The notes under the pieces are model-generated. The model was not told the DNA's origin. It did no database searches and saw only the letters and a list, made by a program, of their open reading frames with translations. Both the position numbers and the translations under genes were made by a program. From positions 1 to 38,841 of IMG/VR virus record IMGVR_UViG_3300049442_000098: a stretch of 38,841 bases of DNA; one strand, written 5' to 3'. Shown piece after piece: positions 9,713 to 32,392 of the stretch (the stretch's first letter is position 1; each line of letters starts with the position of its first letter). This DNA comes from a virus.

Positions 9713-9745
9713 AGACTACACCTTTCCCGACCGGTCGTGTAGGCT
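9713..9745. promoter_or_regulatory. Divergent promoter pair of the TGTAnnCT leader family
   Basis: On plus, TGTAGGCTG (-10 TAGGCT at 9740-9745), then GGCAGACAGACC and AAGGAGG. On minus, TGTAGTCTA (-10 TAGTCT at 9713-9718), then GGCAGACGGACC and GGAGGAGG. Each leads into a gene (9774 plus, 9683 minus). The two halves mirror each other. No good -35 box was found for either. Confidence 0.5.
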
Positions 9746-9773
9746 GTAGGCAGACAGACCGAAGGAGGATGCG

Positions 9774-10508
9774 ATGACCACCACCACGACCGCCCCGTCC
9801 GTAGCCCGGTTCCAGCAGGCACAGGACAAGGTATGGCGCGACGTCGCCCACGAACTGGCCACAGGCCGCAAGAAGACCCACTGGATGTGGTTCGTGTTCC
9901 CGCAGCTCCGGGGCCTCGCCAAGAGCGAGATCGCCCAGCGCTACGGGATCCGCGACAAAGCCGAAGCGCTGGCCTACCTGGACAACGAGGTGCTGCGGAT
10001 TCGGCTGGCCTCCGCCACCATGGCCGTCCTGAAACGCGACCGGCTCATGTTCAGCGACACCGACCGCAAGAAACTCCGCTCGTGCATGACGTTGTTCCGG
10101 GGGCTGGTCACCGACCCCACTCTCCCGGATGCCGTGCTGGCGAAGTTCTACGGCGGCGAGCCGTGCCCGTTGACCTTGGACCTGCTGGCCGGGCGGCCGA
10201 TCCCGCAGCAGTGGACGCCGCCGCCGGTGAGCAGCCGGGGATGGAGCGCACAGGGAAGGGTGGAGACGAAGGTGGGCAGGCACTGGGAGAAGCAGATCGC
10301 GGCGGCCCGCGCCGCCGTCGATGAAGCCAACACCCGGACGCTGTGGGACAACGACCCGATGTCGCATCGCGAGATCGAGTCGTTCATTAGGGGCTTCGGT
10401 CTCTCGGCTGCCGCCACCCGGCAGATCGTGGACCGGTGGATGGAAGACCAGAACCGGGCGACCCAGCAGGGATGGGATTCGCACGACGGCGAGTACCACA
10501 ACGACTGA
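9774..10508 (+). CDS. DUF1810 family protein with C-terminal extension
   Basis: 244 aa, GAAGGAGG five to eight bases upstream. The N-terminal 140 residues are a clear DUF1810 domain: ARFQQAQDKVWRDVAHEL, KKTHWMWFVFPQLRGLAKSE (about residues 36-55), RYGI, EALAYLD, and LRSCMTLF. The conserved His, Trp and Arg are present. The biochemical function of DUF1810 is not established to my knowledge. About 95 residues follow with a possible helical TRQIVDRWMEDQNRATQQG. First gene of the plus-strand accessory run, coupled downstream to the CCPM genes. Confidence 0.85.
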   Translation: MTTTTTAPSVARFQQAQDKVWRDVAHELATGRKKTHWMWFVFPQLRGLAKSEIAQRYGIRDKAEALAYLDNEVLRIRLASATMAVLKRDRLMFSDTDRKKLRSCMTLFRGLVTDPTLPDAVLAKFYGGEPCPLTLDLLAGRPIPQQWTPPPVSSRGWSAQGRVETKVGRHWEKQIAAARAAVDEANTRTLWDNDPMSHREIESFIRGFGLSAAATRQIVDRWMEDQNRATQQGWDSHDGEYHND

Positions 10509-10960: not shown

Positions 10961-11011
10961 TGACAGTTTTTTACAGGCCCGTTGCCCTGCTGGGTGGCGG
11001 GCCTGTACGCT
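10961..11011 (+). promoter_or_regulatory. Promoter with overlapping inverted repeat
   Basis: TTGCCC (10982-10987), 18 bases, TACGCT (11006-11011), then GTGCACAGACAGATC leader and an AGGAGG. A perfect 9-bp inverted repeat (10973-10981 with 10998-11006) spans the -35 and spacer. A TGACAG-T6-ACAG element (10961-10976) precedes it and recurs at 26852-26867 on the other strand. Confidence 0.65.
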
Positions 11012-11041
11012 GTGCACAGACAGATCAATCCAGGAGGCATC

Positions 11042-11713: not shown

Positions 11714-13252
11714 CTACTCGGCCAGGACGACCAGCAGGTCGCCCATGACGTCATCATAATCGGCGGCGCAGTCGACCCGGGTGGCTGCGGCGACCAGGCC
11801 AGACCACTCGGCGGCGACAGAGGAGCGGTGCGCGGCGTCGGCCTGCTCGGCGAGCAGGCCCCGGGCGATGGCCCGACCCAGCGCCTCAGTGTCGGGCACC
11901 CCGTTGTGGGCGCTGGCCGGGGCCTCCTCGGCGAGGCTGGCGAGCGCACCGGCGGCGGTCAGGCTGAGGATCTCGTCGTCCTCCGGCATCCCGCTGATGG
12001 CGGACGCGGTCATCATCCGGGGGATGGGGAACCCTGCCGTGTTGACGTGCAGGGCGGCGACCAGCTCCAGGTTGCCGCCGACCCGACGCCAGTCGCCGGA
12101 CAGCGGGGTTGCGCGCATGACCCGCACGGCAGCGTCGTCCGCCTCTGGCACGAGCGCGCCCGCGACCCAGATGCCGTGGGGGTCTTCACCTGCACGGACG
12201 ACCGCGCCGGTGTTGTTGCTGACGTCGTAGTGCTCGGCTGCCGCGCGGTAGCCGAGATTCGGACCGGCGTGACCTCCGGCGCCGTAGGTGAGGCGGCCGG
12301 TCGGAACCCGGGCGCCGGTGGCGGTGACGACCTCGCCGGTGTGGAAGTAGGCGTAGGACGTCTGCGACTTGGGCGGCTTCACGCAGGAGTTGCCGATGCC
12401 GACGTGGCAGGTGTCCCAGACGGCGACGTGGCCGTAGACGCGGCCGTCGTCGCCGATGTGCAGCGGGGTCGGGCCTTCCAGCTTCGGGTCGTCGAACCAT
12501 TCGCGGGGTGGTGCTGCCGGGGCGGCCCCGGCGATGAGGGCGCGCATCTTCTCCCGGGCCTCCTGCTCGTCGTCGGAGTCCATCTCCGCGTCGTTTTCGA
12601 TCATGGTGCCGTCGGCGGCGATGCTCTCGGCGACCGGTTCAGGTGCCGCCTTGGGCGGCTTGGCGGCCGTCAACACGGCATGGCCGGACAGCTCAGCAAA
12701 CGCGGGGATGTGCACGAGGGTGGCCGACGCGACCCGGCCGGACCGGACCATCTTCAGCCGGGGGCCGTCGTACGCCTCCTCGGCGAACATCGGTTCGGAC
12801 CCGCAGCCGCAGTCGGTGCCGGTGGCGCTGGCGTGGGCGAGCTTCGCGGCCTTCAGCTGAGCCTTCAGCTTGACCTTCTGCTCCCTCTTCCAGACCGCGT
12901 ACGCCTTCGGCTCGGGCACGTGTTCCATCTCGGCCTGGTCGAGGTCGACAGACGGACCGATCACCTTGTTCTGGGTGAACTTCATCGCGGCCGTCGCGGC
13001 GTTGCGGACGTCTTCCGGCCACGACTCGTCGTCGTAGAACTCACCGGAGGCGGGGAGCATCCCCCCGCCCTCGTCGCCGATCTTGCTGATGTGGCCGACG
13101 ATCACAGCGTTGTGGTGCCCGCCGCCGTCGCTCGCGACGTACCGCAGGGGCAGCGGCAGGTCACGATGCGACAGGGCGCCCTTGTCGAACTGACGGCCGT
13201 CACCGGTCGGCTTCCCGACGACGGCGATCGGCATCTTCCAGGCGGTGCCCAT
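11714..13252 (-). CDS. Capsid maturation protease
   Basis: 512 aa, ATG start. The N-terminal half includes HNAVIVGHISKIGDEG and LLP; a Cys/Glu linker follows, and the C-terminal portion carries GRVYGHVAVWDTCHVG, SQTSYAYFHTGEV, and WRRVGGNLELVAALHVNTAG (residues about 403-422), highly typical of actinophage head maturation proteases. These cut scaffold or head proteins during shell maturation. I do not assign catalytic residues. Located between the giant protein and the major capsid gene, interrupted by the plus-strand island. One copy of the dispersed motif lies in the hinge (M-I-E-N). Confidence 0.8.
   Translation of the reverse strand: MGTAWKMPIAVVGKPTGDGRQFDKGALSHRDLPLPLRYVASDGGGHHNAVIVGHISKIGDEGGGMLPASGEFYDDESWPEDVRNAATAAMKFTQNKVIGPSVDLDQAEMEHVPEPKAYAVWKREQKVKLKAQLKAAKLAHASATGTDCGCGSEPMFAEEAYDGPRLKMVRSGRVASATLVHIPAFAELSGHAVLTAAKPPKAAPEPVAESIAADGTMIENDAEMDSDDEQEAREKMRALIAGAAPAAPPREWFDDPKLEGPTPLHIGDDGRVYGHVAVWDTCHVGIGNSCVKPPKSQTSYAYFHTGEVVTATGARVPTGRLTYGAGGHAGPNLGYRAAAEHYDVSNNTGAVVRAGEDPHGIWVAGALVPEADDAAVRVMRATPLSGDWRRVGGNLELVAALHVNTAGFPIPRMMTASAISGMPEDDEILSLTAAGALASLAEEAPASAHNGVPDTEALGRAIARGLLAEQADAAHRSSVAAEWSGLVAAATRVDCAADYDDVMGDLLVVLAE
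12593..12602 (-). repeat. Dispersed motif site 4
   Basis: CATGATCGAAAACGAC, protease hinge, read M-I-E-N. Confidence 0.8.
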
Positions 13253-13533: not shown

Positions 13534-13773
13534 CTAGATGCCCTGTTGATCGGGCAGGTCAGCAGGGTCCGCCCACGACTGCGGATCCCGGCTTTCGATG
13601 TCTCTCACCAGCTGTTGGGTGCCGAGGGACAGCTTCTCCCAGGTGGCCGAATCCTCGCCGCCCGCCGCCTGCCATCCGGCGAGCACCCGGGTGCGCTCCT
13701 CGGGCAGCACGGTGAAGCCGCCCAGCGCGTCGCTGAGGCGGTGGAACAGCTGGCCTACGGCGCTTGTCGGCAT
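13534..13773 (-). CDS. Small helical protein
   Basis: 79 aa, ATG overlapping the stop of the giant gene (ATGA). It has helix-turn-helix-like segments (GQLFHRLSDALGGF, TWEKLSLGTQQLVRDIES) and an acidic end. Its coupling to the giant suggests a function with it, for example an immunity or chaperone partner for the ADP-ribosyltransferase domain. That is inference only. Confidence 0.65.
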   Translation of the reverse strand: MPTSAVGQLFHRLSDALGGFTVLPEERTRVLAGWQAAGGEDSATWEKLSLGTQQLVRDIESRDPQSWADPADLPDQQGI

Positions 13774-16700
13774 CAGCCGGGCTCCTTCTGGATGATCAAC
13801 ACGGAACGGTTCAGCCAGTTGAAGGCAGGCTTTCCGGCGGACGCGACGTGCCCGGCGCCGCCACCGGCGTGCGCGCGGTGGTGCGGGTTGATCTCGATAC
13901 CGTCGAGGCCCTTCGCGGCACCCCAGCGCCCGGGATCCCAGAACGTCGACAGTTCGTAGCCCGAAGACCCCTTCGCCTTCGAGGTGCGCGAGGAGTTGGC
14001 CTGCGCCTCCTTCTCGACCTTGTCGTACTTCTCCATGACGGCGGACTTCGGGATGAGCATCCGCACGATGGAACCCTTGGTGCGGTCCGAGTACTGCTCG
14101 GCGACCCGCTTCTGGGTGGCCAGGTAGTAGCCGTTGCCGAAGATGCCGGTGCCGTAGTACGCCGGGCCGGACCGCATCTCCTCGTTGATGTCGGCGGCGG
14201 TCTTGCCGCCGGAGCTGCCCCGGCCGCGCGGGGACCAGCCGCCGCCCGCGCCGGTCACACCACGCCACGCCTCGATATAGTCGCCGGTCGCCAGGAGCCG
14301 GTCGATCTCCGACTTCGAGACGACGGTCGGGGTGTCGTCGAATCCCTGCTGGGCGCCGATCGCGGCGAGGCGGCCGTCGGCGGTCTTGCCGTCGAACAGC
14401 TTCCGATCGTTCTTGATCTTCTGCCGCTGCGCGTCGATGTCGGCCTTCGAGCCGACCAGGTTCTTGCCGGTCGACTTCTTGTGCGGGTGCGGCCAGGCGT
14501 TGAACGAGGCGGGCGCCTGACGGCCGCCGGGCGGCAGCGAGAGGCGGCCCAGTCGCTTCGAGACCGGGCCGGGCCGGGCGATCTGGCCCAGCTTCTGCCC
14601 CCCGGCTGCCGGGAACAGCGACATGACGTTCTGCTCCAGCTTGCCGCCCGCGAGCGGGGCGAGGAGCTTGCCGGAGGTGTCGAGGGCCTTGATCTCCGAC
14701 TCGGTCATCCACTTGGCGTCGGAGGTTTCCTGCCGGGCGTGGTGCGTCGACAGGTCCGGCTTGAGCATCTTCGGGACCTGCGCGGCGATCGACACGTATT
14801 TCCAGGTGGTGCCGGGGATGGCGTTGGTGTGCTCGCCGTGGATCGCCGCCGACGCCAGGTCGGAGTCCTTGAAGCCCAGTTCCTCAATGACCTCGCGGGC
14901 GCCGCCCTGGTGGAACGTCTCCTTCTCGTCGATGGCGCCGCCGGGGAACTGCCACTTGCCGGGGTCGGAGATTCCGGGTCCGCGCTGGACCATCAGGTAG
15001 CGCTTCTCGCCGGTGCCCGGGTCCTGGTGCATGAGCAGCAGTCCGGCCGCGCCGTACTTGCCCCAGACGCTCTTGCCGCCGGGAGTGGAGATCCAGCCGT
15101 CGCCGCCCTTGCCCTTGTTGGTGGCCTGCACGAGGGTGCCGACGACCGGGGTGGGATAGCGGACCTGCCCGGGGACGGAGTTCGCCGGGGGGATGATCGC
15201 CGGGTTGCCGGGGGTCTGCCCGGCGGGGGTTCCGGGCGGGGTGAACCGGTCGATGAGCTTGCCCGCCTTGGTGGCGGATGGCCCCTTCGCGGTCGTCTGG
15301 ATGAACGACAGGTCGGACAGGAGGTGCTGCTGCTCCTGGACGTTCAGGTTGTTGAAGTCGCCGCCGCGCAGCCCGCCGTAGGTGGACAGCTGGTGGGCCA
15401 TCGTGTGCGACTTCGGGTGGACGCCGTAGATGGTGTCGAGGGCGTCCTGCACGTGCTGCGGCACGTTCGGCTGCACGGACGTCGGCACCGTCCCCGACGG
15501 CAGGTTCGAGACGACCGGCGCCGGGTGGAACTTGGCGGTCATCACCTGCCGGGGGGAAGCGGGCAGGTTGTTGATCCGCTCGTCGATGGCCTCGCGGAAG
15601 GTCGGCGACAGGGCGTCGTAGTCGGCCTTGCTGAGGTTGTGGAAGGCGAGGGCCGCAGACGGGTCGGAGTATCCGGCGGTCGGGTGCGGGTCGGCGGCCT
15701 GGACGGCGGACACCTGGTTGGGGGTGAGGGTGACCTGGCTGTTCAGCTTGAGCAGGACGTCCTTGTTCATCGCCGCGTCGTAGCGGGTCTGCAACGGCAA
15801 CGACGAGTCGTTTTCGATCTTGCCCAGGTCGTCGAACACGGCCTTCTGCGTCGCGTCCGGCAGCCCCGTCAGCTTGATCGGGGTGACCTTGTTGTACGTC
15901 TCCACCCGGGACGCCGGGGCGACCAGGTCCCGGCCGTAGCTGGCGATGTCGGCGACGTTGCGCGACTCCCGGTCGGCGGGCACCACCCGGGAACCTTCCA
16001 GGTGTGCTGCCAGGGCGTTCGGGAACGCCGCGAGGGCGTTGTCCTGCGGCGACCACCAGCGTGACGGCCCGGCGTTCTCCAGCCGCTTCTGATAGCTGCG
16101 CAGGTCCGTCTTGATGGCTCCCCGGGCGAAGTCGGGCAGCGACCGGAAGGCGGCCGGGTCCATCTGGCGGTAGGCGTCGGCCTTCGCGGCCCCGGTACGG
16201 GCGTACTTGTCGGAGGCTGCCACGAGGGCGTCGCGGGTCGCACCGTCCAGAGGGCTGTCGCCTTCCAGCTCGCGCAGCGCCATCCATGTTCTGGTCTTCG
16301 CGTGGTTGTCGCTCTGCCCGGCCAGCCGCTTCCGGACGGTCTTCAAAACCAGGGTCTGCACGTCGCCCGGCAGTGCCCGGTACAAGTCGAGCCGGTCGCG
16401 GGGGATCTCCCCGCCATCCGCCATGTGGATGCCGAGGTAGTGGTTGACGACGTCGTTGCGGGTGGCTTCCGACCAGGGGCTTCCGGTGGGCACGCCCGGC
16501 TCGCCGCGCAGCCCGGTCCGCAGGATGTTTTCGCGCAGGTCACGGACGGCCTGCGCATGGATCGGGTCGAGGGCGTTCAGGTCGCTGTCGGAGGTGCGGA
16601 AGATCTGGCTGATGTCCGTCGAGCTGAGCCGGGGCGCAGGCTCCCAGTTGTGCTTCATCCCGGCGAGGGAGACGGGGTAATAGCCGGGGGCGCCGTAGGC

Positions 16701-19286
16701 GGGCTGCCCGGCCAGCGTGGATCGGACGTACGGCGGCAGGGTCGGGTTGTCCCGGGCAACCCGCAGGGCTTCCTTGTCCAGGACTCCCAGGGCGGCCCTG
16801 TGTGTGGTGGGGGGGGCCTGGACCCGGGCGGTCGCGAACTGGGAATAGAGCTGATCGCCGTCGATCTTCCCGGCGCGGAAGTCGGCCTCAGCCTGCTTGA
16901 GCCGGTGCACGGCCGGGTGTTCGCCGGTGTACGCGATGACGGCCTTCTCGACCCCGGCATCGAGGGTGAGGTCGCCGCCGTTGTGGATCCGGTCGTGGTG
17001 CAGGGCCTGGAGGGCGTCGAGGATCTGCCGCTGCTCGTCAGGGTTGAGAGCGTCGAACTGCGGCTTGGTCAGCGCACTGAGGGCCTGGAGGCGGGCCGCA
17101 GCGGTGGCGGGGCTCCTTGGAGCCTTCGCGGCGTCGAGGGCGTCGAGGCGCTGCTGTACGCCGGACGTCTTCTCCTCGCCGTGCAGTTCGCCGAGGGACG
17201 GGGTGTGGTCCCACTTGCGGGACGTCTGCGCCGGGCTGCCCTTGTTGATCATCCGGCCGTAGGCGGCGGCCGACGCCTTCTGCGCGTCGGTGGCCTTCGG
17301 GTGGGTGGCGATGAACGCCAGCCGACCGAGCACCGTCCGCTTGTCGACGTCGTCGAGCTTGCCGACCTGCTCCGGGGACAGCCGGGCAACAGCCTTCAGG
17401 ACATCATCGGTCGGTGCGGCGCTGGCGGCGGCCTTGACGACCTGCTGCTGCGGGTCGCTGTAGCCCTTCGGGTGCGCCGGAGCGCTCGGGGTGTCGACCT
17501 TGACCGCGACGGCCTTGACGACCTGCGCGCCGTTCTGCTTCTGCTGGGCGGTGAGGACACCCTTCAGGGCGGCGGCCTCACTGTTGTGGAAGCTGACGAC
17601 CCCTTCGGTGCCGTCCGGCCAGCGCACGATCGAGGCGTGGGTATACGGCTGGTTGCTGGTGCGGGTGACCGTCTTGCCGTTGTGGGTGACGGTGAAGGTC
17701 TTCCGGCCGCCGGTAGGCGCGGGGGTCGGAGTCCCACTCGGTGCGGTGGCCGCCGGGGCGCCCGGGGCCGGGCCGGTGTGCCTTGATCCAAAACGATCGA
17801 GGAGATCCTGCGCGGCCTGCGACTTCTTCGGGTCGAGGAACTTCGCCTTCGCGTTGGCCAGGTCGTCGCGGATGGTCCGCTGCGTCTGCGTGTCGAGGCG
17901 ATCGAAGTCGTCCTTGGACAGCTTGCCGTAGACGTCGACATGGGTCTTCGCCGTCGGGCGTCCGCCGAGGGCGCGACCGGCGACGGCGCGGGCGTGCTGG
18001 AGGTGCGGCGGGAACGCCTGCGGGGTGTTGGACGGCGGCCCGGGAGCCTGCGGGGTCGGACCGGACGGCGGCGCGGGCGGGGTTGGCGGGGTGGCATTGC
18101 CACCGTGGACGTTGGCGTGATCATGGGCGTACTTCTCCAGGGCCGCCTGCGTCGAGCTGGTCCGGATCAGCTTGCCGTTGTGCTTGAGGCTGTAGCCCAT
18201 GCCGTCGCGGGTGATCCGGTAGCCATTGGGCAGGCCGACGGAGGTGGAGGTGACGGAGCCGCCGGGCAGGGGCTTGTTGAGCACGCCGAGGGAGTCGCGG
18301 CTCCCGCGCTTCGGGGCCGGTGCGGGGGCGGGCAGCTGCGGCGTGGGCGTCGGGGGGATGAGCTTGGTGGCCTGGCCCAGGGTCGTCTTCCCCGGGGCCG
18401 CAGACGGCACGTGGGGGGCGGCCGGGGCCGATGCGGGCGTGGTGCCGCCGAGGGTCGTCCCGGCGGGCAGCTTCGCCAGGAGGGCATCGGCGCGGGTCTG
18501 CTGCGGGCCGAAGCCGCGTACCTTGATCGCTTCCAGCTCGTCACGGATCGCGGTCCGGTCTGCCGGGGAAAGGTCCGACCATTCCTGCGCGGTGAGCTTC
18601 GATGCCTTGTCGAGCTTGTACTGGTCGGTGACCTTCGGCTGCGTGATGACGAACGCAGGGCCGCGCCCGGCGACGGTCGGCTTCTTGCCCTTTGGGCCGG
18701 TCGGCAACGGTGCCGTGTTCGTCTTGATCCCGGCGGCCTGGTTGATCGCCCGCGAGGCGTTGTGCGCCTGCCCACCCGCAAGGTCGGCCTGCTGGTTGAC
18801 CTTGCCCAGCGGGGTGGGGGTGGCGCCGGTCGCCGGGTGGGTGTGGCCGGAGCCGGTGCCGGGGGCAGGCTTCGCCTTGATCTCGGTGAGCAGCTTGCGG
18901 GGGATGGGCTTGCCCTGCGAGCGCAGGTCGGCGATCCGCTTCACCCGGCGGGCGTTGGCCTTCGCGACCCGCTCGTCTTCCACCTGCTTCCAGATGTGCG
19001 GGGAGACGGAGTGCAGGGTGCCCTTCCAGCCCTTGCAGGGGCCGGGGTGCAGCGGGGCGCGGCAGGCGGTCAGGGAGCACGGCTCGTGCGCGTCGTCGTC
19101 CTGGTTGACCCAGCCAGCGATCGACGCCCAGATGACGGGCGGGCTCCCGAGGATCGGGATGGGGCCGGAGGCGGAGGCGGTGAGCGTATCCGTGTAGATC
19201 TGCCCGGCGACGGCGTCGATGTCGAACGTGGGCAGGGGTGCGACATGAAATCCGTACCCCTGCACCAGCCGCCCGAGCGTCGTCAT
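13773..19286 (-). CDS. 1837-aa virion-associated protein: helical repeats, NUDIX and ART domains
   Basis: The ATG at 19286 was chosen; the ribosome site is weak. Layout: residues 1-60 beta-like; a Cys/His cluster ending PLHPGPCKGWKG near 78-89; a low-complexity Pro/Ala/Thr region; about ten degenerate helical repeats centred on patterns such as LSPADRTAIRDEL, DFDRLDTQTQRTIRDDL and DFNNLNVQEQQHLLSDL (about 230-1340); a NUDIX domain around 1409-1545 with a full box in GGAIDEKETFHQ plus GGAREVIEELGF; and a C-terminal ADP-ribosyltransferase-like domain (about 1652-1837) with WRGV, GTGIFGNGYYLA and LDGIEINPHHRA. It lies between the MuF/sugar cassette and the protease, as head-associated polymorphic effectors do. 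It may be packaged or injected and modify host protein by ADP-ribose transfer. The acidic catalytic residue is not certain. Confidence 0.85.
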   Translation of the reverse strand: MTTLGRLVQGYGFHVAPLPTFDIDAVAGQIYTDTLTASASGPIPILGSPPVIWASIAGWVNQDDDAHEPCSLTACRAPLHPGPCKGWKGTLHSVSPHIWKQVEDERVAKANARRVKRIADLRSQGKPIPRKLLTEIKAKPAPGTGSGHTHPATGATPTPLGKVNQQADLAGGQAHNASRAINQAAGIKTNTAPLPTGPKGKKPTVAGRGPAFVITQPKVTDQYKLDKASKLTAQEWSDLSPADRTAIRDELEAIKVRGFGPQQTRADALLAKLPAGTTLGGTTPASAPAAPHVPSAAPGKTTLGQATKLIPPTPTPQLPAPAPAPKRGSRDSLGVLNKPLPGGSVTSTSVGLPNGYRITRDGMGYSLKHNGKLIRTSSTQAALEKYAHDHANVHGGNATPPTPPAPPSGPTPQAPGPPSNTPQAFPPHLQHARAVAGRALGGRPTAKTHVDVYGKLSKDDFDRLDTQTQRTIRDDLANAKAKFLDPKKSQAAQDLLDRFGSRHTGPAPGAPAATAPSGTPTPAPTGGRKTFTVTHNGKTVTRTSNQPYTHASIVRWPDGTEGVVSFHNSEAAALKGVLTAQQKQNGAQVVKAVAVKVDTPSAPAHPKGYSDPQQQVVKAAASAAPTDDVLKAVARLSPEQVGKLDDVDKRTVLGRLAFIATHPKATDAQKASAAAYGRMINKGSPAQTSRKWDHTPSLGELHGEEKTSGVQQRLDALDAAKAPRSPATAAARLQALSALTKPQFDALNPDEQRQILDALQALHHDRIHNGGDLTLDAGVEKAVIAYTGEHPAVHRLKQAEADFRAGKIDGDQLYSQFATARVQAPPTTHRAALGVLDKEALRVARDNPTLPPYVRSTLAGQPAYGAPGYYPVSLAGMKHNWEPAPRLSSTDISQIFRTSDSDLNALDPIHAQAVRDLRENILRTGLRGEPGVPTGSPWSEATRNDVVNHYLGIHMADGGEIPRDRLDLYRALPGDVQTLVLKTVRKRLAGQSDNHAKTRTWMALRELEGDSPLDGATRDALVAASDKYARTGAAKADAYRQMDPAAFRSLPDFARGAIKTDLRSYQKRLENAGPSRWWSPQDNALAAFPNALAAHLEGSRVVPADRESRNVADIASYGRDLVAPASRVETYNKVTPIKLTGLPDATQKAVFDDLGKIENDSSLPLQTRYDAAMNKDVLLKLNSQVTLTPNQVSAVQAADPHPTAGYSDPSAALAFHNLSKADYDALSPTFREAIDERINNLPASPRQVMTAKFHPAPVVSNLPSGTVPTSVQPNVPQHVQDALDTIYGVHPKSHTMAHQLSTYGGLRGGDFNNLNVQEQQHLLSDLSFIQTTAKGPSATKAGKLIDRFTPPGTPAGQTPGNPAIIPPANSVPGQVRYPTPVVGTLVQATNKGKGGDGWISTPGGKSVWGKYGAAGLLLMHQDPGTGEKRYLMVQRGPGISDPGKWQFPGGAIDEKETFHQGGAREVIEELGFKDSDLASAAIHGEHTNAIPGTTWKYVSIAAQVPKMLKPDLSTHHARQETSDAKWMTESEIKALDTSGKLLAPLAGGKLEQNVMSLFPAAGGQKLGQIARPGPVSKRLGRLSLPPGGRQAPASFNAWPHPHKKSTGKNLVGSKADIDAQRQKIKNDRKLFDGKTADGRLAAIGAQQGFDDTPTVVSKSEIDRLLATGDYIEAWRGVTGAGGGWSPRGRGSSGGKTAADINEEMRSGPAYYGTGIFGNGYYLATQKRVAEQYSDRTKGSIVRMLIPKSAVMEKYDKVEKEAQANSSRTSKAKGSSGYELSTFWDPGRWGAAKGLDGIEINPHHRAHAGGGAGHVASAGKPAFNWLNRSVLIIQKEPG
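15810..15819 (-). repeat. Dispersed motif site 5
   Basis: CAAGATCGAAAACGAC, in the giant gene. Confidence 0.8.
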
Positions 19287-19321: not shown

Positions 19322-20191
19322 CTAGACACGCAGGGCGCGGATGACCCCCTGCTCCAACGTCACCTTCGGCGTGTAAATCTCGTGGAAGCGGGTCGGGTCA
19401 CCCACCCGGTAGGCGACCCCGGCAGGCTTGTCGGACAGGGCCTCCACCGACGGCTCGAACCCGGCCACGGAGGCGGCGAGGCGGGCCAGCTCGAACATCG
19501 ACAGGCCGTCGCCCGTGCACAGGTTGACCGGCTCGGTCGTGCCCGACTCGGCAACGGCCAGCATTCCGGACACCACGTCGTCGATGTGAATCCAGTCGCG
19601 GACCTGCGTCCCCGAACCCCACACCGTCACCGGGTCCTCGCGGCGGATCACCCGGTCGAGGATGGCCCGGAACGGGAAGTCCGTCGACTGGTCCTCGCCG
19701 TAGCCGGAGAACGGCCGGACCACGGTCACCGGCAGGCCAGCCTTGCGGGCTTCGGCGGCCAGGCGCTCGCCAGTGAGCTTCGCCCAGCCGTAGACGGAGT
19801 CAGGCTCGGAGCAGTCGGAGAGGTCCACCATGTCCTCGTACAGCGGCTCCCGATAGGCGTTGTCCCGCTGGAATTCGATCGGGTAGACAGCCGAGGAGGA
19901 CAGGTACAGCACGCGCCCCTGCCCGGTCCGCACAGCCCACTCGAACATCGCCGAGTCCAGCTGGAGGTTCCGGGCGAAGTGCTGCGGCTGACTGTCGATG
20001 GCGACGCGGTGCGGGGCGCTGGCGGCGCCGTGCACGATCAGGTCGTACTGCGAGGTGCCCTGACGGAAGTAGGCGAGGGCGTCGAACCCGTCAGCGATGT
20101 CGAGTCCGGCCGTGTCCCACCCCATCAGGTCGAGGCGTTCCATCACGTGGCGTCCGACGAAGCCGGAGCAGCCCGTGACCAGCGCCCTCAC
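19322..20191 (-). CDS. NAD-dependent sugar epimerase/dehydratase (SDR family)
   Basis: 289 aa from a GTG that overlaps the upstream TGA. It starts with an SDR Rossmann fold (RALVTGCSGFVGRHV), then an IVHGAAS segment, LYLSSSAVY, and YGWAKLTGE with the YxxxK catalytic pair (about residues 150-158); C-terminal RDWIHIDDVVSGM is the substrate-binding pattern. These enzymes convert nucleotide-activated sugars, for example 4-epimerases or reductases. In tandem with a methyltransferase and glycosyltransferase it probably makes or alters a sugar placed on the virion. Confidence 0.85.
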   Translation of the reverse strand: MRALVTGCSGFVGRHVMERLDLMGWDTAGLDIADGFDALAYFRQGTSQYDLIVHGAASAPHRVAIDSQPQHFARNLQLDSAMFEWAVRTGQGRVLYLSSSAVYPIEFQRDNAYREPLYEDMVDLSDCSEPDSVYGWAKLTGERLAAEARKAGLPVTVVRPFSGYGEDQSTDFPFRAILDRVIRREDPVTVWGSGTQVRDWIHIDDVVSGMLAVAESGTTEPVNLCTGDGLSMFELARLAASVAGFEPSVEALSDKPAGVAYRVGDPTRFHEIYTPKVTLEQGVIRALRV

Positions 20192-20751
20192 AGGCACGCC
20201 CAGATCTGGTAGGCGTAGATGCCGACGGTCGGCCGGGTGTCGACGGTGGTGTGCACGCCCGGGGTGAAGCCCGCGTTGCGGAGCATCTTCTCCACCGCTT
20301 CGGAATCCCAACCCCACACGTGCTCGGGGTTCCTGTCGTCGTCCTCACCGTCAGGCGTCGACAGGATCAGCCGGTCCGTCTTCTCCCGGATCCGGGCGAG
20401 GACGGCGTCGGGGTCGTCGAGGTGCTCAATCGTCTCCGAGCAGATGAACAGGTCCACATGGTCGATGTCTTCGATCGTCTGTTCGATCGGGCCGGTGTGT
20501 TCGTAGCCGGGGGCGAAGTCGCCGAAGACCGCGCGGGCGCCGTGGGACGCCTGCAACCGCTGGAGGATGAGGCCGTTGCCGCAGGACAGGTCGGCGACGC
20601 GGCCCCCCTGAGGCATCAGCAGCCCGGCGACGGCTGAGGTGACATCGACCCGGAACAGGTGGTCTTCCCAGCGGCGGTGGTCGTGCGGAATCTTGTACAT
20701 CTCGGCCAGCTCGTGCTCCGTGGGCATCGGCCGTAGCCGCTTGCGCATCAT
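20188..20751 (-). CDS. SAM-dependent methyltransferase
   Basis: 187 aa, start overlapping the preceding stop. Motif I GGRVADLSCGNGLIL (about residues 49-63), an acidic motif II (VFGDFAPGYEH), FICSETIEHLDDPD (motif IV-like) and LILSTPDGE. A class I fold with a size and linkage fitting small sugar or O-methyltransferases. Being inside the sugar cassette suggests it methylates a glycosyl group; DNA or protein methylation cannot be excluded. No target-recognition domain is seen. Confidence 0.8.
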   Translation of the reverse strand: MMRKRLRPMPTEHELAEMYKIPHDHRRWEDHLFRVDVTSAVAGLLMPQGGRVADLSCGNGLILQRLQASHGARAVFGDFAPGYEHTGPIEQTIEDIDHVDLFICSETIEHLDDPDAVLARIREKTDRLILSTPDGEDDDRNPEHVWGWDSEAVEKMLRNAGFTPGVHTTVDTRPTVGIYAYQIWACL

Positions 20752-21434
20752 CGCAACGCCTTCACTTTCTGGATGTCGGCCATCAGGTGACGGGAAGCAT
20801 AGTCCCCGTACGCCTGACTGTCCCGGGCATACATCCTCGGATCGTTGACACGCACATACCCGTCGTCCATCTGCGCCTTTCCCGCGAACGGGTGGACGTG
20901 CTCAACGACCGTGTCCGCCAGGTAGGTGATGCAGTCGGCACCCTTGCCCAGGTCGAGCCAGTAGTTGTCGACGAACAGGTGGGTCAGGCACGCCGGGGCC
21001 ATGTGCCCGAGCGCGAGCACGATGTCGGAGGTCATCGCGACCTGGGTGGGGATCCGCTCATGCTGGAGGAGGTCGTCGCCGTAGACGAGACCGGTGCCGA
21101 GCTTGGCCAGGGCGCGCAGGTAGTTGCCGTCCCAACCGGGGGTGCGGGGCCGGTGGTCGTCGCCGAGGAAGCCTAGGGCGCGCGCGGTCGGCGCGTAGTG
21201 CACGGCGGCGGCGTTCAGGGTGGCGACCATCGTCGAGGGGGCCGGGGCGACGAACAGCTCCGCGTTCGGCTCGGTCCTGGTGAAGGTCTCGTATCCGTCG
21301 AGCAGCGGATCGTCGGAGTCGACGGCGACGACAAGCTTCGTGTTGGCGGTGCACGTCTGGTAGAAGGCGGTGACCACCTCGCGGACAGCCTCAGGCCGTC
21401 CGCGAGAAGGGACGATGGCCACGAACGGGGTCAC
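20748..21434 (-). CDS. GT-A-like glycosyltransferase
   Basis: 228 aa; GTG overlaps the stop of the MuF gene. PFVAIVPSRGRPEAV (start), LVVAVDSDDP (about 34-43), GFLGDDHRPRTPGWD (about 88-102) and YGDDLLQHERIP are the nucleotide-sugar and metal-binding features of family-2-type GT-A enzymes. The product likely adds a sugar to a virion protein. The three genes 19322-21434 are coupled through overlapping starts and stops. Confidence 0.75.
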   Translation of the reverse strand: MTPFVAIVPSRGRPEAVREVVTAFYQTCTANTKLVVAVDSDDPLLDGYETFTRTEPNAELFVAPAPSTMVATLNAAAVHYAPTARALGFLGDDHRPRTPGWDGNYLRALAKLGTGLVYGDDLLQHERIPTQVAMTSDIVLALGHMAPACLTHLFVDNYWLDLGKGADCITYLADTVVEHVHPFAGKAQMDDGYVRVNDPRMYARDSQAYGDYASRHLMADIQKVKALR

Positions 21435-22834
21435 TTGCTGGCTTCTCTCAAGGTCTTGTTCTCCTCGTGCTTACGCTTCTTCGCTGCCGCCGCCGCCTTG
21501 GCCTTGTGGTAGGCGGTGCGCTCCTTCGGCGACATCTTGGCGAGCTTCGCCTTCTCTGCGCGGCGTTCCAGGATCCGCTGCGCGCGGCGCTTCAGGGTGT
21601 CCTTGTGGCGGGCTGCACGGCGGTCCAGGGTGTCCTGCTGGTTGGTGTCCTGCACGCCGGTCCGCTTCGCCTGGTCGTTCTCGCGGGTGGCATCCTTCAG
21701 CTTCTGCTTGTGCGGGGCGAGGGCGCGCTTGTAGCCGGAGATGGCCTTGCGTGCCATGGCGGCCAGCTTCGGGTTTCCGGGGTTCTGCGCGGCGACAGCT
21801 GCCGCCTGCTGGATGGCCTTCTCCAGGCCGGTGACGGCCGTCTGAGCGACCTGCGCGGGGGTCTTCTTCGTGGCGTCCTGGTAGTCGGGTTCGGTGCCGC
21901 CACGCTTCTGCCCCTTGCACAGGCCAGGCTTGTGGGTGAGCTTGCAGAACTGGCCGTCGGTGCACACCTCCTGCATGAGGGTGATCGAGGCGCGTAGCGA
22001 CGGCGTCTTGTACTGGCGGTTGCCCATCGGTGTGGGCTCGTTTTCGATCTCCATCAGCTCGACACACCGGCAGTTGACCACCTGGTCGGCGGGCGCCCCG
22101 GCGGCGTGCGGGTGCATCATCAGCACGACGCCTTCGGGGCCGAGCCGGAACGGGGTGCCCCACGGCTGCACCTGGCCGTCGGCCTCGCGGTGGTCGGGAC
22201 GGGTCCGCTGGTCTTCGGTGGCCAGCCACCGGTGCACGTACTTCGTGCCGGAGTCGTCGTTGTCGACGATCATCGAGAACGCGTCGTGCAGACCGCCGTT
22301 GTAGGCGCCGACGACCTCGGTCCGCGCGACAGTCCGTGCCCGGTTCTTCCACCGCTGCACGCCGGTGTCTCCGAACAGCTGTTCGATCTGGTCCTGCACG
22401 TCGGGGATGCTCGCCCCGTTGGTAGTTGCCGAGTCAATGATGTGGGAGACCAGGCCGAAGACCTCATCGGGGACAGCCCGGAGCCGGTTGTCGGTGTCGG
22501 CGATCCAGTTGCGCACGAACGGCCGCGAATCGAACAGGGCACCGTCCGCAAACAGATCGCGGTACGGGGCGGCAAGCACCTCCTCCGCGACCTTCGCCGA
22601 GTACTTCGCGGTGAGGGCCGCCCACTTCGGCCCCTGCGAGAAGACCTTCATCGGGTCGGGCACGAGCGCCAGGCGGGCAACACCACCGGCAAACATCGCG
22701 ACGCGGACGGCGGCAAGCCACTCCAGCATCATGTCCAGGTACGCCTCATACAGGGGCGGCTCATACTGGGCGAAGACCGCCACGGCCGCCTGCTGCTGCG
22801 CGGCGGCGTTAGGCAGGGTCGCTGGCTGCGGCAT
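21431..22834 (-). CDS. MuF-like minor head protein
   Basis: 467 aa. Helical N-terminal half, then the phage Mu F C-terminal domain: ARTVARTEVVGAYNGGLHDA (about 165-184), WLATEDQRTRPDHREADGQV (about 206-225), and LMMHPHAAGAPADQVVNCRC. It is followed by a Cys/His cluster (CTDGQFCKLTHKPGLCKG) and a very basic, coiled-coil-like C-terminus (about 330-467). MuF proteins sit on the portal side inside the capsid and often move with the DNA. The Cys/His cluster resembles that of the giant protein. Carries one motif copy. Confidence 0.85.
   Translation of the reverse strand: MPQPATLPNAAAQQQAAVAVFAQYEPPLYEAYLDMMLEWLAAVRVAMFAGGVARLALVPDPMKVFSQGPKWAALTAKYSAKVAEEVLAAPYRDLFADGALFDSRPFVRNWIADTDNRLRAVPDEVFGLVSHIIDSATTNGASIPDVQDQIEQLFGDTGVQRWKNRARTVARTEVVGAYNGGLHDAFSMIVDNDDSGTKYVHRWLATEDQRTRPDHREADGQVQPWGTPFRLGPEGVVLMMHPHAAGAPADQVVNCRCVELMEIENEPTPMGNRQYKTPSLRASITLMQEVCTDGQFCKLTHKPGLCKGQKRGGTEPDYQDATKKTPAQVAQTAVTGLEKAIQQAAAVAAQNPGNPKLAAMARKAISGYKRALAPHKQKLKDATRENDQAKRTGVQDTNQQDTLDRRAARHKDTLKRRAQRILERRAEKAKLAKMSPKERTAYHKAKAAAAAKKRKHEENKTLREASK
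22040..22049 (-). repeat. Dispersed motif site 7
   Basis: GGAGATCGAAAACGAG, MuF gene; the only copy without CAW before GATC. Confidence 0.75.
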
Positions 22835-25857: not shown

Positions 25858-25910
25858 GGTCTGTCTATGCACAGCATACAGCCCCCTCGCCCAGCAGGGC
25901 AAGAGGGCTG
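25858..25910 (-). repeat. 53-bp exact repeat, copy 1, holding a promoter
   Basis: Identical to 26802-26854 and in the same orientation. On the minus strand it contains TTGCCC (25897-25902), an 18-base spacer, TATGCT (25873-25878) and the GCATAGACAGACC leader, and drives the 46-aa membrane protein gene. Confidence 0.85.
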
Positions 25911-25924
25911 CGGCTTTCTTCCCG

Positions 25925-26233
25925 TCAGGCCGTCAGCGTATCGAGGAACGCCAGCAGCGCGGCCTTCAGGCGGCCACCCCGATCCCCTCGACGGAAGATC
26001 GCACCCGGGATCCACGGGTGGTCATTGTCCAGCTCACGGCGGGCGTCAGCGACGACCTCCTCCAGCTCCGGATCGACGTCGACCTGGAAGACGGCGACGG
26101 GCCGCATCTCCAGGTCGAACGACCAGTGCTTCATCTTCTGCTCGCCAGCGAACGCCTGGTGGGCGATCATCCGGGCCGCAACGTCGGCGTAGTCGACACC
26201 GTCGGGCACCTCGAACATGACTGCCAGCTTCAC
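25925..26233 (-). CDS. Small hypothetical protein following the macro-domain gene
   Basis: 102 aa; GTG overlaps the macro-domain stop. A beta strand start (KLAVMFEVPDGVDYADVAAR) and acidic centre (AVFQVDVDPELEEVVADARR) suggest a compact alpha/beta fold. No recognised family. Coupled with the macro gene, so it may share its pathway. Confidence 0.65.
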   Translation of the reverse strand: MKLAVMFEVPDGVDYADVAARMIAHQAFAGEQKMKHWSFDLEMRPVAVFQVDVDPELEEVVADARRELDNDHPWIPGAIFRRGDRGGRLKAALLAFLDTLTA

Positions 26234-26784
26234 AGGCCCGGCCTTCCCGCGAGGATGGCCTTGGCCAGCGTGTAGGTGTGCGCGTCGAACGTGACCAGCT
26301 TGATGTCCCTGACGCTGGTCCGGGCGCCCTGGATGGCGGTGATGGCCTGGTGGATGGCGTCGCCGACCGGCCAGGCGTAGACGCCGGAGGAGATCAGCGG
26401 GAACGCGACGCTGCGGGCCTTCAGCCGGTCGGCGGCGGCCAGGGAGTTCGTGTAGCAGGCGCGCAGCAGGGCCGGATCGGGTTCCTTGCGGTAGTGCGGG
26501 CCGACGGTGTGGATGACGTACATGGCGGGGAGCTTGCCGCCGCCGGTGACGGCGGCCTCGCCGACGCACAGGCCGTGCGGGTAGATGGCGGCGCGCAGGC
26601 GTAGGCACTCTTCGAGCAGCTGCGGACCGGCCGCCTCGTGGATGGCGCCGTCAACGCCGCCGCCACCCAGCAGGGACGACTTGGCGGCGTTGACGATGGC
26701 GTCGACTTCCAGGGTGGTGATGTCGCCCCGCACGATCTCCAGGCGGGGGGAGCGGCGGAACCAGCTGCGGATACGGGAGAACAT
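26230..26784 (-). CDS. Macro-domain protein (ADP-ribose binding or hydrolase)
   Basis: 184 aa; GAAGGG before ATG. A full MacroD-like domain: EIVRGDITTLEVDAIVNAAK (about 16-35), SSLLGGGGVDGAIHEAAG (about 36-53), CVGEAAVTGGGKLP, VIHTVGP, CYTNSLAAADRLKARSVAFP and ISSGVYAWP. Macro domains bind ADP-ribose; MacroD types can remove it from protein or O-acetyl-ADP-ribose. Oddity: the usual NAAN is NAAK here, while the GGGGVDGAIH loop with its Asp is intact. It may reverse or shield ADP-ribosylation by the giant protein or the host. Confidence 0.85.
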   Translation of the reverse strand: MFSRIRSWFRRSPRLEIVRGDITTLEVDAIVNAAKSSLLGGGGVDGAIHEAAGPQLLEECLRLRAAIYPHGLCVGEAAVTGGGKLPAMYVIHTVGPHYRKEPDPALLRACYTNSLAAADRLKARSVAFPLISSGVYAWPVGDAIHQAITAIQGARTSVRDIKLVTFDAHTYTLAKAILAGRPGL

Positions 26785-26801: not shown

Positions 26802-26854
26802 GGTCTGTCTATGCACAGCATACAGCCCCCTCGCCCAGCAGGGCAAGAGGGCTG
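26802..26854 (-). repeat. 53-bp exact repeat, copy 2, holding a promoter
   Basis: Same sequence as 25858-25910. Here the -35 TTGCCC is 26841-26846 and the -10 TATGCT is 26817-26822. ACAGCCC and GGGCTGT arms (26822-26828, 26849-26855) form an inverted repeat round the promoter; the T6 element lies upstream (26852-26867). It drives the macro-domain gene. Confidence 0.85.
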
Positions 26855-27868: not shown

Positions 27869-27911
27869 GGAACACAGGTCAGGGGGCATGAGCCCAGGGC
27901 GCCTGACCTCG

Positions 27912-27983
27912 CTGCGGGGGCGGGGTCCGAACCCGCATCGTCGACTCCGGGGCCGACTGCTCTGCCTGTTGAGCTACCCCACA
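27912..27983 (-). tRNA. tRNA, Arg(CCG) or Pro(CGG) by alignment
   Basis: Acceptor TGTGGGG with CCCCGCA, TA, a D-arm GCTC/GAGC, T-stem GCGGG/CCCGC with loop TTCGGAC. The anticodon stem GTCGG/TCGAC closes an 8-base loop (CCCCGGAG) instead of seven, and U33 is absent; the variable region is short. The identity depends on which side the extra base is placed. Confidence 0.65.
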
Positions 27984-28356: not shown

Positions 28357-28605
28357 TCAGGCGGTCCACGCCACCCTCGCGACGATCAGCCGCCCCGACA
28401 GGCGGGCATAGCGGGCGGCGAGACGGAACCTGCCCCGGGCGGCCGAGCGGACAGCGGCGACCATCGGGCAGCAGTCGCCGCCCTTGTGGTTGGTGCCGCC
28501 GCCGGTACCGCCGGACCGGTAGTGCGGCAGGGGGCCGTTCCCGGCGCCGCCGCCACCACGGTTCGGGGGGCGACCACCAGACGGGCGCGGCTTGCCCTTC
28601 GCCAT
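28357..28605 (-). CDS. CCPM-family small basic protein, copy 3
   Basis: 82 aa; ATG shares bases with the upstream TAA. Gly/Pro/Arg-rich start (GKPRPSGGRPPNRGGGG), then GGDCCPMVAAVRSAARGRFR and LAARYARLSGRLIVARVA. Same family as the two plus-strand genes at 10520-10953, but on the other strand and next to tRNAs. Confidence 0.7.
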   Translation of the reverse strand: MAKGKPRPSGGRPPNRGGGGAGNGPLPHYRSGGTGGGTNHKGGDCCPMVAAVRSAARGRFRLAARYARLSGRLIVARVAWTA

Positions 28606-29312
28606 TACTGCGCCACCTCATCCTGCGTGGCAGGCTCCGGCACGTCCGGGGTGAACGTGACGGTGCCGCCACCCAGCTCCCGGGCCGCCTTGGTGAGGTG
28701 CCGGGCGAAGTCCAGGAGCCGGTCGACAACCTCGGCGGAGTCGTGGCCGTCCCACTTCGGCGAGTGTTCCAGCACGGTGACCGCTTCGAAGCGGTCCCAG
28801 TCGGCCAGCGGGTAGTGGTAGCTGACCGTCCCGGCGGGCAGCTCCATCCCGACGATGAAGTAGCCCGCGAACATCGGGTCGTCTTCGGGGTGGTGCTGCT
28901 TGGAGCGCCACGAGTCCCCGCCGATCGCACCGATGGTCGCCAGGACGGCGGTCAGGGCGCAGCGGTGGTCGTACAGCTCCTGCATCGTGTGGTAGCCGTC
29001 GGACAGGGTGGGGATGTCGTCGTCCTGGACTGCCACGGTCGCCTCCTCGGGGGCGCCTTCACGGAAGAGGACGCCCTGGTTCTGTACCTCGTTGATGGCG
29101 TCGGTGATGCCCTGCTCGTCGAGGCCGCACTTGGCGAGGCCCTTGCGGACCTTCGTCAGGGTGTTCTCGTCGTAGACGGTGACGTCGGTGATGACGTTGT
29201 CGGCCCGCTCCAGGGCGGCGGCCTCGGGGGACACCAGCGGCAGCAGGAGTGCCTGCGAGGGGGCGGGCGCCTGGGCGTTGTCCCGTGGGGTGTACCCGGT
29301 CGGGTCGGTCAC
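28605..29312 (-). CDS. WDGH-motif phage protein
   Basis: 235 aa from a GTG overlapping the previous stop. A helical N-terminal half (RADNVITDVTVYDENTLTK) is followed by the conserved block YDHRCALTAVLA, SKQHHPEDDPMFAGYFIVGM, TVSYHYPLADWDRFE and SPKWDGHDSAEVVDRLLDFA (about 177-196). This block recurs in many phages with WDGH near its end; its biochemical role is not known. The acidic and aromatic residues hint at a small-molecule or nucleotide site. Confidence 0.75.
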   Translation of the reverse strand: MTDPTGYTPRDNAQAPAPSQALLLPLVSPEAAALERADNVITDVTVYDENTLTKVRKGLAKCGLDEQGITDAINEVQNQGVLFREGAPEEATVAVQDDDIPTLSDGYHTMQELYDHRCALTAVLATIGAIGGDSWRSKQHHPEDDPMFAGYFIVGMELPAGTVSYHYPLADWDRFEAVTVLEHSPKWDGHDSAEVVDRLLDFARHLTKAARELGGGTVTFTPDVPEPATQDEVAQ

Positions 29313-29488
29313 TTGTGGTCTCCAAACGGTGCGGCGAACCAGCCGTTCTTGGTTCCGGGACTGTTCGGCGGGCCGACTCGCATCCCACCTGCCTGCTGGG
29401 AGGTGTCGCAGCGGCGGCAGATGTGGATGCCGAAGGTCTTGCCGTCGAGCATCCACATCTCGAAGCCGCAGGAGCAGCGGGTGGGCAT
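29309..29488 (-). CDS. Small zinc-ribbon protein
   Basis: 59 aa; ATG overlaps the previous stop and the TGA overlaps the next GTG. CSCGFEMWMLDGKTFGIHIC and RRC give a C-x-C...C-x2-C zinc ribbon (residues 5-27), with a polar tail. Short coupled genes in this place are typical accessory genes. Confidence 0.65.
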   Translation of the reverse strand: MPTRCSCGFEMWMLDGKTFGIHICRRCDTSQQAGGMRVGPPNSPGTKNGWFAAPFGDHK

Positions 29489-29893: not shown

Positions 29894-30049
29894 GGTACTA
29901 GGTCGTTCCGTGCTCCGCGTGTCGACCCGCTCGGCGTTTCCCGACCGTTTCCTGTTACCAGCCGGTTGCCTCCTTATCCGGCGCTGGCGAGCGGTCCCGC
30001 CTCAGGCATCCCGTCTTTCCGGGGCGTCAGCCCGTCTATCCAGGCTGTG

Positions 30050-30122
30050 TGCCCGGCCGTGGATTCGAACCACGATCCTCCAGCCCCCCGGGCTGGCGCT
30101 CGTCCATCGAGCCGTACCGGAC
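30050..30122 (-). tRNA. tRNA-Pro(GGG)
   Basis: Complete cloverleaf: acceptor GTCCGGT/GCCGGGC (with wobble), D-arm GCTC/GAGC, anticodon stem CCAGC/GCTGG around CCGGGGG, T-arm with TTCGAAT. C instead of U at position 33. Confidence 0.75.
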
Positions 30123-30420: not shown

Positions 30421-30458
30421 GTACAGCCTGCGTGCAAGCCATGAAGCACTTTCGGCTG

Positions 30459-30530
30459 TGGTGCTGGACGGATTCGCGCCGCCGACCTCCTGCCGTGAGG
30501 CAGGTGCTCTATCTGCTGAGCTACAGCACC
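30459..30530 (-). tRNA. tRNA-like with shortened anticodon loop
   Basis: Acceptor GGTGCTG/CAGCACC, D-arm GCTC/GAGC and T-stem are all regular. The anticodon arm is CCTGC, six bases, GCAGG (or a 6-bp stem with TCAC loop), one to three bases short. The T-loop starts CG instead of TT. The body resembles Ala/Val tRNAs. Confidence 0.55.
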
Positions 30531-32197: not shown

Positions 32198-32392
32198 TGC
32201 ATCTCCCTCGGTTGTCTGCTTACAGCATACACCAAGGGTGCGACGGAAACGGGAGCGCCCCGAGCCTCGCCGCCCTGCCCGGAGTTTCACCGTGGCCGCA
32301 ACGCGAGGTAGTCGGGACGTCTTGAGTGTCGCAGCACTGCCGCGATTTCAACCCGTTGGAACCCGGTGACGAGACCGGCAACGGCACCCACC

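What the first reader, a model, noticed from the sequence alone, without database searches (positions are those of the whole stretch)
26230..26784. ADP-ribose circuit: macro domain alongside ART and NUDIX
The macro-domain gene has its own duplicated promoter and is coupled to a 102-aa partner, while the ART/NUDIX giant is in the late operon. Writer, possible processor and possible eraser are thus all in 14 kb. This may protect phage components from the phage's own ART, or counter host ADP-ribosylation or NAD-based defence. The DUF1810 gene has no established role and is only a possible associate.
Basis: inference. Interest (0 to 1): 0.78.

Follow-up and report, generated by a model that had tools for sequence, protein, structure and literature searches.

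The report
Phage macro domain with altered catalyst
A group of phages related to those of actinobacteria carries an ADP-ribose-binding protein whose key catalytic residue has been swapped for lysine in every copy seen, which suggests it grips ADP-ribose compounds, perhaps to disarm bacterial defences, more than it erases the phage's own marks.

Summary
Window 26230-26784(-) encodes a MacroD-type macro domain with its own promoter, copied perfectly 944 bp away, and a 102-aa ORF overlapping its stop. The 1837-aa protein at 13773-19286(-) has an intact NUDIX box and an ART-fold C-terminus. All three (macro, ART/NUDIX, DUF1810) occur in 9 of 9 close relatives over 50 kb.

The proposed writer-eraser circuit is only partly supported. 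Two outgroup lineages keep the ART but lack macro and DUF1810. Macro does not share regulation with the ART. It shares a promoter motif with DUF1810 and, in relatives, with an ERF recombinase gene, so it is probably expressed early.

The unexpected part is the active site. The catalytic Asn of MacroD enzymes (NAAN) is Lys (NAAK) in 19 of 19 clade loci found by a site-blind scan. It is Asn in 10 of 10 other viral loci and 79 of 80 cellular homologues. Among about 40 family-wide near-invariant columns it is the only one changed, and the gene is under purifying selection. Best reading: an early ADP-ribose-ligand binder (or altered-chemistry enzyme) acting against host ADP-ribose-based defence, not a standard eraser of the phage's own ART mark. 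Function is inferred, not shown.

The parts
26230..26784 (-). MacroD-type macro domain protein, 184 aa; Lys35 (codon 26680-26682) at the site of the MacroD catalytic Asn
   Evidence: Pfam PF01661 2.1e-37; PDB MacroD relatives; K at the site in 19 of 19 clade loci
26803..26827 (-). promoter-like repeat copy 1; the core TATGCTGTNNNNAGACAGA begins 38 nt before the macro ATG and follows a G+C-rich hairpin
   Evidence: exact duplicate, chance 0; core 5 in the window against 0.01 expected; geometry
25859..25883 (-). promoter-like repeat copy 2, in front of the 65-aa ORF
25925..26233 (-). 102-aa ORF, GTG start overlapping the macro stop; not conserved in all relatives
   Evidence: no family
9740..9758 (+). 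same promoter core (1 mismatch), begins 34 nt before the DUF1810 ATG
9774..10508 (+). DUF1810 / Rv1873-fold protein, 244 aa, co-distributed with macro
   Evidence: PF08837 2.3e-41; 2jek Z 22.7; present in 18 of 26 ART-positive records
13773..19286 (-). 1837-aa protein with NUDIX (residues 1427-1533) and C-terminal ART fold; between MuF and head genes
   Evidence: PF00293 5.4e-13; model pLDDT 82.5; ART-fold rows
11006..11024 (+). same promoter core (1 mismatch) before a 148-aa ORF of unknown function
32211..32229 (-). weaker promoter core (2 mismatches) before a 57-aa ORF

Best explanation
The macro gene is part of a dispersed, probably early-expressed regulon (with DUF1810 and, in relatives, an ERF recombinase), inserted between the terminase and portal genes of one clade of phages related to those of actinobacteria. 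The protein descends from an actinobacterial-type MacroD hydrolase. It keeps the conserved ADP-ribose-pocket motifs, but its catalytic Asn was replaced once by Lys and has stayed Lys since. Most likely it is an ADP-ribose-ligand binder with weak or absent MacroD hydrolysis. It would be made early to hold (sequester or shield) ADP-ribose-type signals or marks produced by host NAD-based defence. Shown here: family, synteny, promoter sharing, fixation of Lys, purifying selection, and persistence of the ART without macro in outgroups. Inferred: early timing, ligand binding, loss of hydrolysis, counter-defence role.
For: Single changed site: of about 40 columns near-invariant in both sets, the only one that differs between 16 phage and 78 cellular rows is this Asn (K 16 of 16 against N 77, D 1). 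Site-blind viral scan: K in 19 of 19 clade loci, N in 10 of 10 others, 1 of 30 truncated. Site-blind cellular scan: N 79, D 1, K 0 of 80 kept loci. Actinobacterial genomes: NAAK pattern in 1 of 396, NAAN in 116 of 396. Purifying selection: dN/dS 0.083 and 0.092 in the two pairs that could be computed. Effect of losing this Asn: in SARS-CoV-2 Mac1, N40A cuts activity about 10-fold and N40D about 100-fold while the ADP-ribose pose is kept (PMC10499221, passages); MacroD2 Asn92 shields the 2''-OH (PMC7050489, passages). Shared promoter: motif upstream of macro in 18 of 19 clade loci and 0 of 10 others, before DUF1810 and before ERF genes. Binding-only macro domains that recognise ADP-ribose signals exist in Thoeris ThsA (PMC11204291, passages).
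Against: No Lys variant of this site has been assayed in anything I read; Lys could support another chemistry. The early timing rests on motif sharing with ERF genes only, not on transcription data. No host is known, so no particular defence system can be named. The partner ORF is unexplained. One clade record (G012) lacks the motif upstream of macro. A Streptomyces-like cellular macro also has Lys (L165), so the change is not unique to phages.
Confidence: 0.42

Rival explanations
1. Active eraser aimed at host marks or metabolites: the Lys is tolerated or tunes specificity, and the protein hydrolyses ADP-ribose adducts made by host defence (for example ADP-ribosylated nucleic-acid ends).
For: The other near-invariant catalytic-loop and ligand residues are kept. 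A Streptomyces MacroD (SCO6450) acts on ADP-ribosylated RNA phosphate ends (PMC11833690, passages). Early-type promoter.
Against: Every measured substitution of this Asn in the paper read reduces activity; 89 of 90 comparators outside the clade keep Asn (10 of 10 viral, 79 of 80 cellular).
Confidence: 0.24
2. Self-protection circuit: the macro removes or shields marks made by the phage's own C-terminal ART, newly injected or made late.
For: All three genes in 9 of 9 clade records over 50 kb. The ART fold is supported, and its best structural row is a cyanophage pre-ejectosome chain, consistent with injection.
Against: Outgroups G025-G029 keep the ART without macro. No shared promoter with the ART operon. 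Hydrolytic Asn lost. The ART's third catalytic Glu is not conserved, so its activity is itself unproven.
Confidence: 0.16
3. Altered covalent chemistry: Lys35 attacks ring-opened ADP-ribose (Schiff base or Amadori product), making a suicide trap or a new hydrolase mechanism, as the unrelated Lys84 does in TARG1.
For: TARG1 Lys84 forms such an adduct (PMC7050489, passages). Lys is kept with both codons, 16 AAG and 1 AAA of 17 rows, and is invariant at about 57% overall identity.
Against: Lys84 lies in another part of the fold (recalled); no structure of a Lys variant seen; the adduct is untested.
Confidence: 0.1
4. Housekeeping: clean-up of ADP-ribose-phosphate by-products of RNA repair, or of O-acetyl-ADP-ribose.
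For: A standard macro role listed in PMC9503650 (section read).
Against: No RNA-repair family among the 10 proteins of relative G008 scanned (not the whole genome); the Asn loss should hurt this too.
Confidence: 0.06

Closest known systems
MacroD-type macro domains (human MACROD1/2, E. coli YmdB, O. iheyensis MacroD, S. coelicolor SCO6450)
   Same: Same fold family, GDIT, GGGGVDGAIH and HTVGP motifs; groups with actinobacterial MacroD genes
   Different: Catalytic-loop Asn replaced by Lys in all clade members
Binding-only macro domains: Thoeris ThsA TM-macro, macroH2A1.1, PARP14 macro
   Same: Expected ligand (ADP-ribose) and probable lack of hydrolysis (ThsA: PMC11204291, passages)
   Different: Phage protein of MacroD descent, without the ThsA architecture; binding not measured here
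Phage polyvalent / MuF-linked ART and Nudix proteins (Iyer et al. 2022, PMC9503650)
   Same: ART and NUDIX in a protein coded beside MuF, portal and head genes; macro genes in the same virus world
   Different: ART and NUDIX lie on an 1837-residue protein separate from MuF; ART found only by structure prediction; third Glu not conserved
Phage sponges for nucleotide immune signals (Tad1, Tad2, Acb2; PMC12043709, abstract in listing only)
   Same: Proposed mode: a phage protein holding a signalling nucleotide
   Different: Unrelated fold family (recalled); no such activity shown here

Membership tests
MacroD-type macro domain | Macro fold/sequence family | tested here: met
   PF01661 2.1e-37; MacroD structures top the list
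MacroD-type macro domain | Catalytic loop GGGGVDGAIH | tested here: met
   kept in all clade rows, with small changes (GGHG, GGSG, SGGG) in three
MacroD-type macro domain | Conserved catalytic Asn (MacroD2 Asn92, SARS-CoV-2 Mac1 N40) | tested here: not met
   Lys in 19 of 19 clade loci, 16 of 16 aligned rows
MacroD-type macro domain | ADP-ribosyl hydrolase activity | not testable with these tools
   needs an assay
ART fold (C-terminus of 13773-19286) | ART fold | tested here: met
   model pLDDT 82.5, pTM 0.82; the 50 VIA rows shown are ART proteins or, at the top, a phage ejectosome chain (Z 6.6, rmsd 5.1, 141 aligned). Z under 8, so moderate support
ART fold (C-terminus of 13773-19286) | Third catalytic Glu (R-S-E / H-Y-E; recalled) | tested here: inconclusive
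   No Glu in clade rows at the strand after G216 (PAFNWLNR and close variants); outgroups read EA(Y/F)N; residue mapping is by eye
ART fold (C-terminus of 13773-19286) | Sequence hit to a known ART family | tested here: not met
   no ART family in Pfam or PHROGs; no PDB sequence hit at E 10 with profile A3
NUDIX hydrolase | Nudix box GX5EX7REUXEEXGU | tested here: met
   GGAIDEKETFHQGGAREVIEELGF read from the translation; PF00293 5.4e-13. The box formula is recalled
DUF1810 / Rv1873-like | Rv1873 fold | tested here: met
   2jek Z 22.7, rmsd 1.6, 136 aligned; PF08837 2.3e-41
NADAR (considered) | NADAR sequence family in these phages | tested here: not met
   PF08719 in 0 of 13 records
NADAR (considered) | NADAR fold in the DUF1810 protein | tested here: inconclusive
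   the rows shown cannot exclude it

The most novel reading that the evidence does not exclude
A phage lineage converted a captured actinobacterial MacroD hydrolase, by one Asn-to-Lys change at the catalytic site, into a dedicated ADP-ribose-signal trap, binding or covalently capturing host NAD-derived immune signals. It would be deployed early together with a DUF1810 protein, which would be the first member of that family with a role in the ADP-ribose conflict.
Probability: 0.22. Interest if true: 0.85.

Novelty: new variant of a known kind. Interest (0 to 1): 0.58.

Why it matters
Macro domains are the commonest ADP-ribose-handling domains in viruses (PMC9503650, section read), yet I found no paper on their role in phages of actinobacteria. 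A lineage in which the one residue most needed for hydrolysis is uniformly Lys, and nearly everything else in the pocket is kept, is a natural experiment separating binding from cleavage. It gives a clean test (K35N, K35A) of whether phage macros act as erasers or as traps for defence signals. It also hands DUF1810, whose structure was released in 2007 as a hypothetical protein, a co-regulated partner.

Tried and rejected
Pfam, PHROG and PDB-sequence searches did not find the ART; structure prediction was needed. The giant and the partner have no match in the named-phage collection, and the DNA of 20.0-38.8 kb has none. DUF1810 as a NADAR relative: nothing in its support (no NADAR among the rows shown). 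ARH erasers in the phages: 0 of 13 records. Papers: DUF1810 is named in 2 papers and Rv1873 in 5, seen as search listings only; neither listing gave a function. No paper held the terms used for cyanophage A4.

The first macro scan with an alignment used patterns that contain NAAK, so its 'all Lys' is biased; I repeated it with an alignment starting after the site. In one search, 78 of 80 cellular rows were used: two were not extracted by the script. The tree is a quick tree; p-AU 0.62 does not reject one origin for the phage rows, and a Paractinoplanes row with Asn falls inside or beside them. dN/dS could be computed for 2 of 10 pairs; the others gave math errors.

Full report
The window is a 38.8-kb virus record, 69% G+C. 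Gene order on the minus strand is small terminase, large terminase, a variable block with the macro gene, a DUF1360 protein, portal, MuF, three enzyme genes, the 1837-aa NUDIX/ART protein, a head protein and the capsid. The nearest named phages by capsid mostly infect actinobacteria, at about 38-41% identity.

The macro gene is at the stated place, has a promoter-like repeat that occurs twice without mismatch, and overlaps a 102-aa ORF. The NUDIX is certain. The ART is not seen by sequence. A model of its last 235 residues from 22 sequences reaches pLDDT 82.5, and the listed structural rows are ART proteins plus a cyanophage pre-ejectosome chain at the top (Z 6.6). Foldseek alone gives PARP1/2 at E about 5e-3, with none under 0.001. 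The third catalytic Glu is not conserved in the clade, so activity is open.

Co-occurrence. Two scans, with the macro alignment and with the ART-domain alignment, plus one record, gave 36 records that I searched whole. Macro is in 20 of 36, the ART in 26 of 36, DUF1810 in 18 of 36. Of the 26 ART records, 11 have macro. Of the 15 without, 5 belong to two outgroup lineages (G025-G027; G028-G029) and 10 are fragments of 31.7 kb or less. For those whose coordinates I compared (G002, G011, G013, G017, G030) the contig ends before the expected macro site, judged from the coordinates. All 9 clade records over 50 kb hold all three. In outgroups G026 and G029 the large terminase is followed directly by the DUF1360 and portal genes, so the macro block looks like an insertion at that point. 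Because the difference sits on one boundary, the co-occurrence does not prove a functional link of macro and ART. It does show that the ART can do without the macro.

Regulation. The core TATGCTGTNNNNAGACAGA is found 5 times in the window against 0.01 expected: before macro (38 nt to ATG), a 65-aa ORF, DUF1810 (34 nt to ATG), a 148-aa ORF and a 57-aa ORF. It lies upstream of macro on the same strand in 17 of 18 loci in one set, none antisense, and in 18 of 19 clade loci but 0 of 10 other viral macro loci in another. It lies before DUF1810 in 19 of 20 loci under a lenient setting, 10 of them within about 50 nt (several loci are the same record). In G004 and G008 it precedes ERF genes. It was not found in outgroups G026 and G029, nor in the window before the giant. 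I infer an early regulon.

The active site. In all clade macro proteins the second Asn of NAAN is Lys. My first alignment scan was biased because its patterns contained the site, so I repeated with an alignment starting after it. In viral contigs, 30 loci: 19 of 19 clade loci with the site visible have Lys, 10 of 10 others have Asn, 1 truncated. In bacterial and archaeal contigs, the best 80 of 587 relatives: Asn 79, Asp 1, Lys 0. In 396 actinobacterial genomes the Lys pattern occurs in 1 and the Asn pattern in 116. Comparing 16 phage with 78 cellular rows, about 40 columns are near-invariant in both sets, and this is the only one of them that changed. The frame is open in every clade row and dN/dS is 0.08-0.09 in the two of ten pairs that could be computed. 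A quick tree puts the clade inside actinobacterial MacroD genes; one origin is not rejected, p-AU 0.62. The single cellular Lys protein, L165, groups with Streptomyces rows, apart from the phages.

What it means. In SARS-CoV-2 Mac1, also MacroD-type, N40A lowers catalysis about 10-fold and N40D about 100-fold, while ADP-ribose binds in the same pose in N40D (PMC10499221, passages). MacroD2 Asn92 shields the 2''-OH (PMC7050489, passages). The phage Lys therefore probably disables or redirects hydrolysis and leaves the pocket. Macro domains that only bind are known in the Thoeris effector ThsA (PMC11204291, passages), and phage proteins that sequester immune nucleotides are known (abstracts in listing). 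Iyer et al. proposed that phage Macro, NADAR, SLOG and Nudix proteins mainly counter small ADP-ribose signals (PMC9503650, passages and one section). I therefore favour an early ADP-ribose-ligand binder acting in counter-defence. Steps not shown: binding, loss of hydrolysis, timing, target.

DUF1810. Its model matches Rv1873 (2jek) at Z 22.7, with the next row at 4.9. It is not linked to ADP-ribose by anything I found, but it shares distribution and promoter with macro.

Not in print, as far as these searches go: the listings showed no paper on a Lys-variant MacroD or on a phage macro acting as a sponge; the library holds open-licence papers only, and I read passages of only a few.

Noticed in passing
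L020 3332-3889 (G008 43332-43889, -): Relative G008 encodes a host-cell-surface-exposed lipoprotein (PF07553, 6.6e-19), a family known from superinfection exclusion (recalled), hinting at a temperate lifestyle.
   Followed up: no
window 21431-22834 and 11714-13252: The MuF protein and the 512-aa protein match different parts of one PHROG (phrog_859, 807 positions): a protein that is single elsewhere may be split here around the giant and three enzyme genes.
   Followed up: no
L080/L081 (G029 about 54.5-60.2 kb): In outgroup G029 the order portal-giant-MuF differs from portal-MuF-giant in the window and in G026.
   Followed up: partly
window about 13776-14480 (ART domain, around residue 218 of model m116da6e53c30): Clade ARTs read PAFNWLNR or close variants, while outgroups without macro read EA(Y/F)N(W/V)LNR: a possible loss of the catalytic Glu that coincides with gain of the macro; one event, mapping by eye.
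   Followed up: partly
window 19322-21434: An epimerase, a methyltransferase and a glycosyltransferase/methyltransferase-like gene sit between MuF and the giant and have no match in G026, G029 or G018.
   Followed up: no
window 27911-27983, 30049-30122, 30458-30530: Three tRNA-like genes on the minus strand; two have anticodons that ARAGORN reads as 4 or 2 bases.
   Followed up: no
window 28605-29456: Protein with a WDGH domain (PF25311, 5.4e-32).
   Followed up: no
L165 (unnamed actinobacterial genome G210): A cellular MacroD gene with the same Asn-to-Lys change, grouping with Streptomyces rows: an independent case worth an assay.
   Followed up: partly
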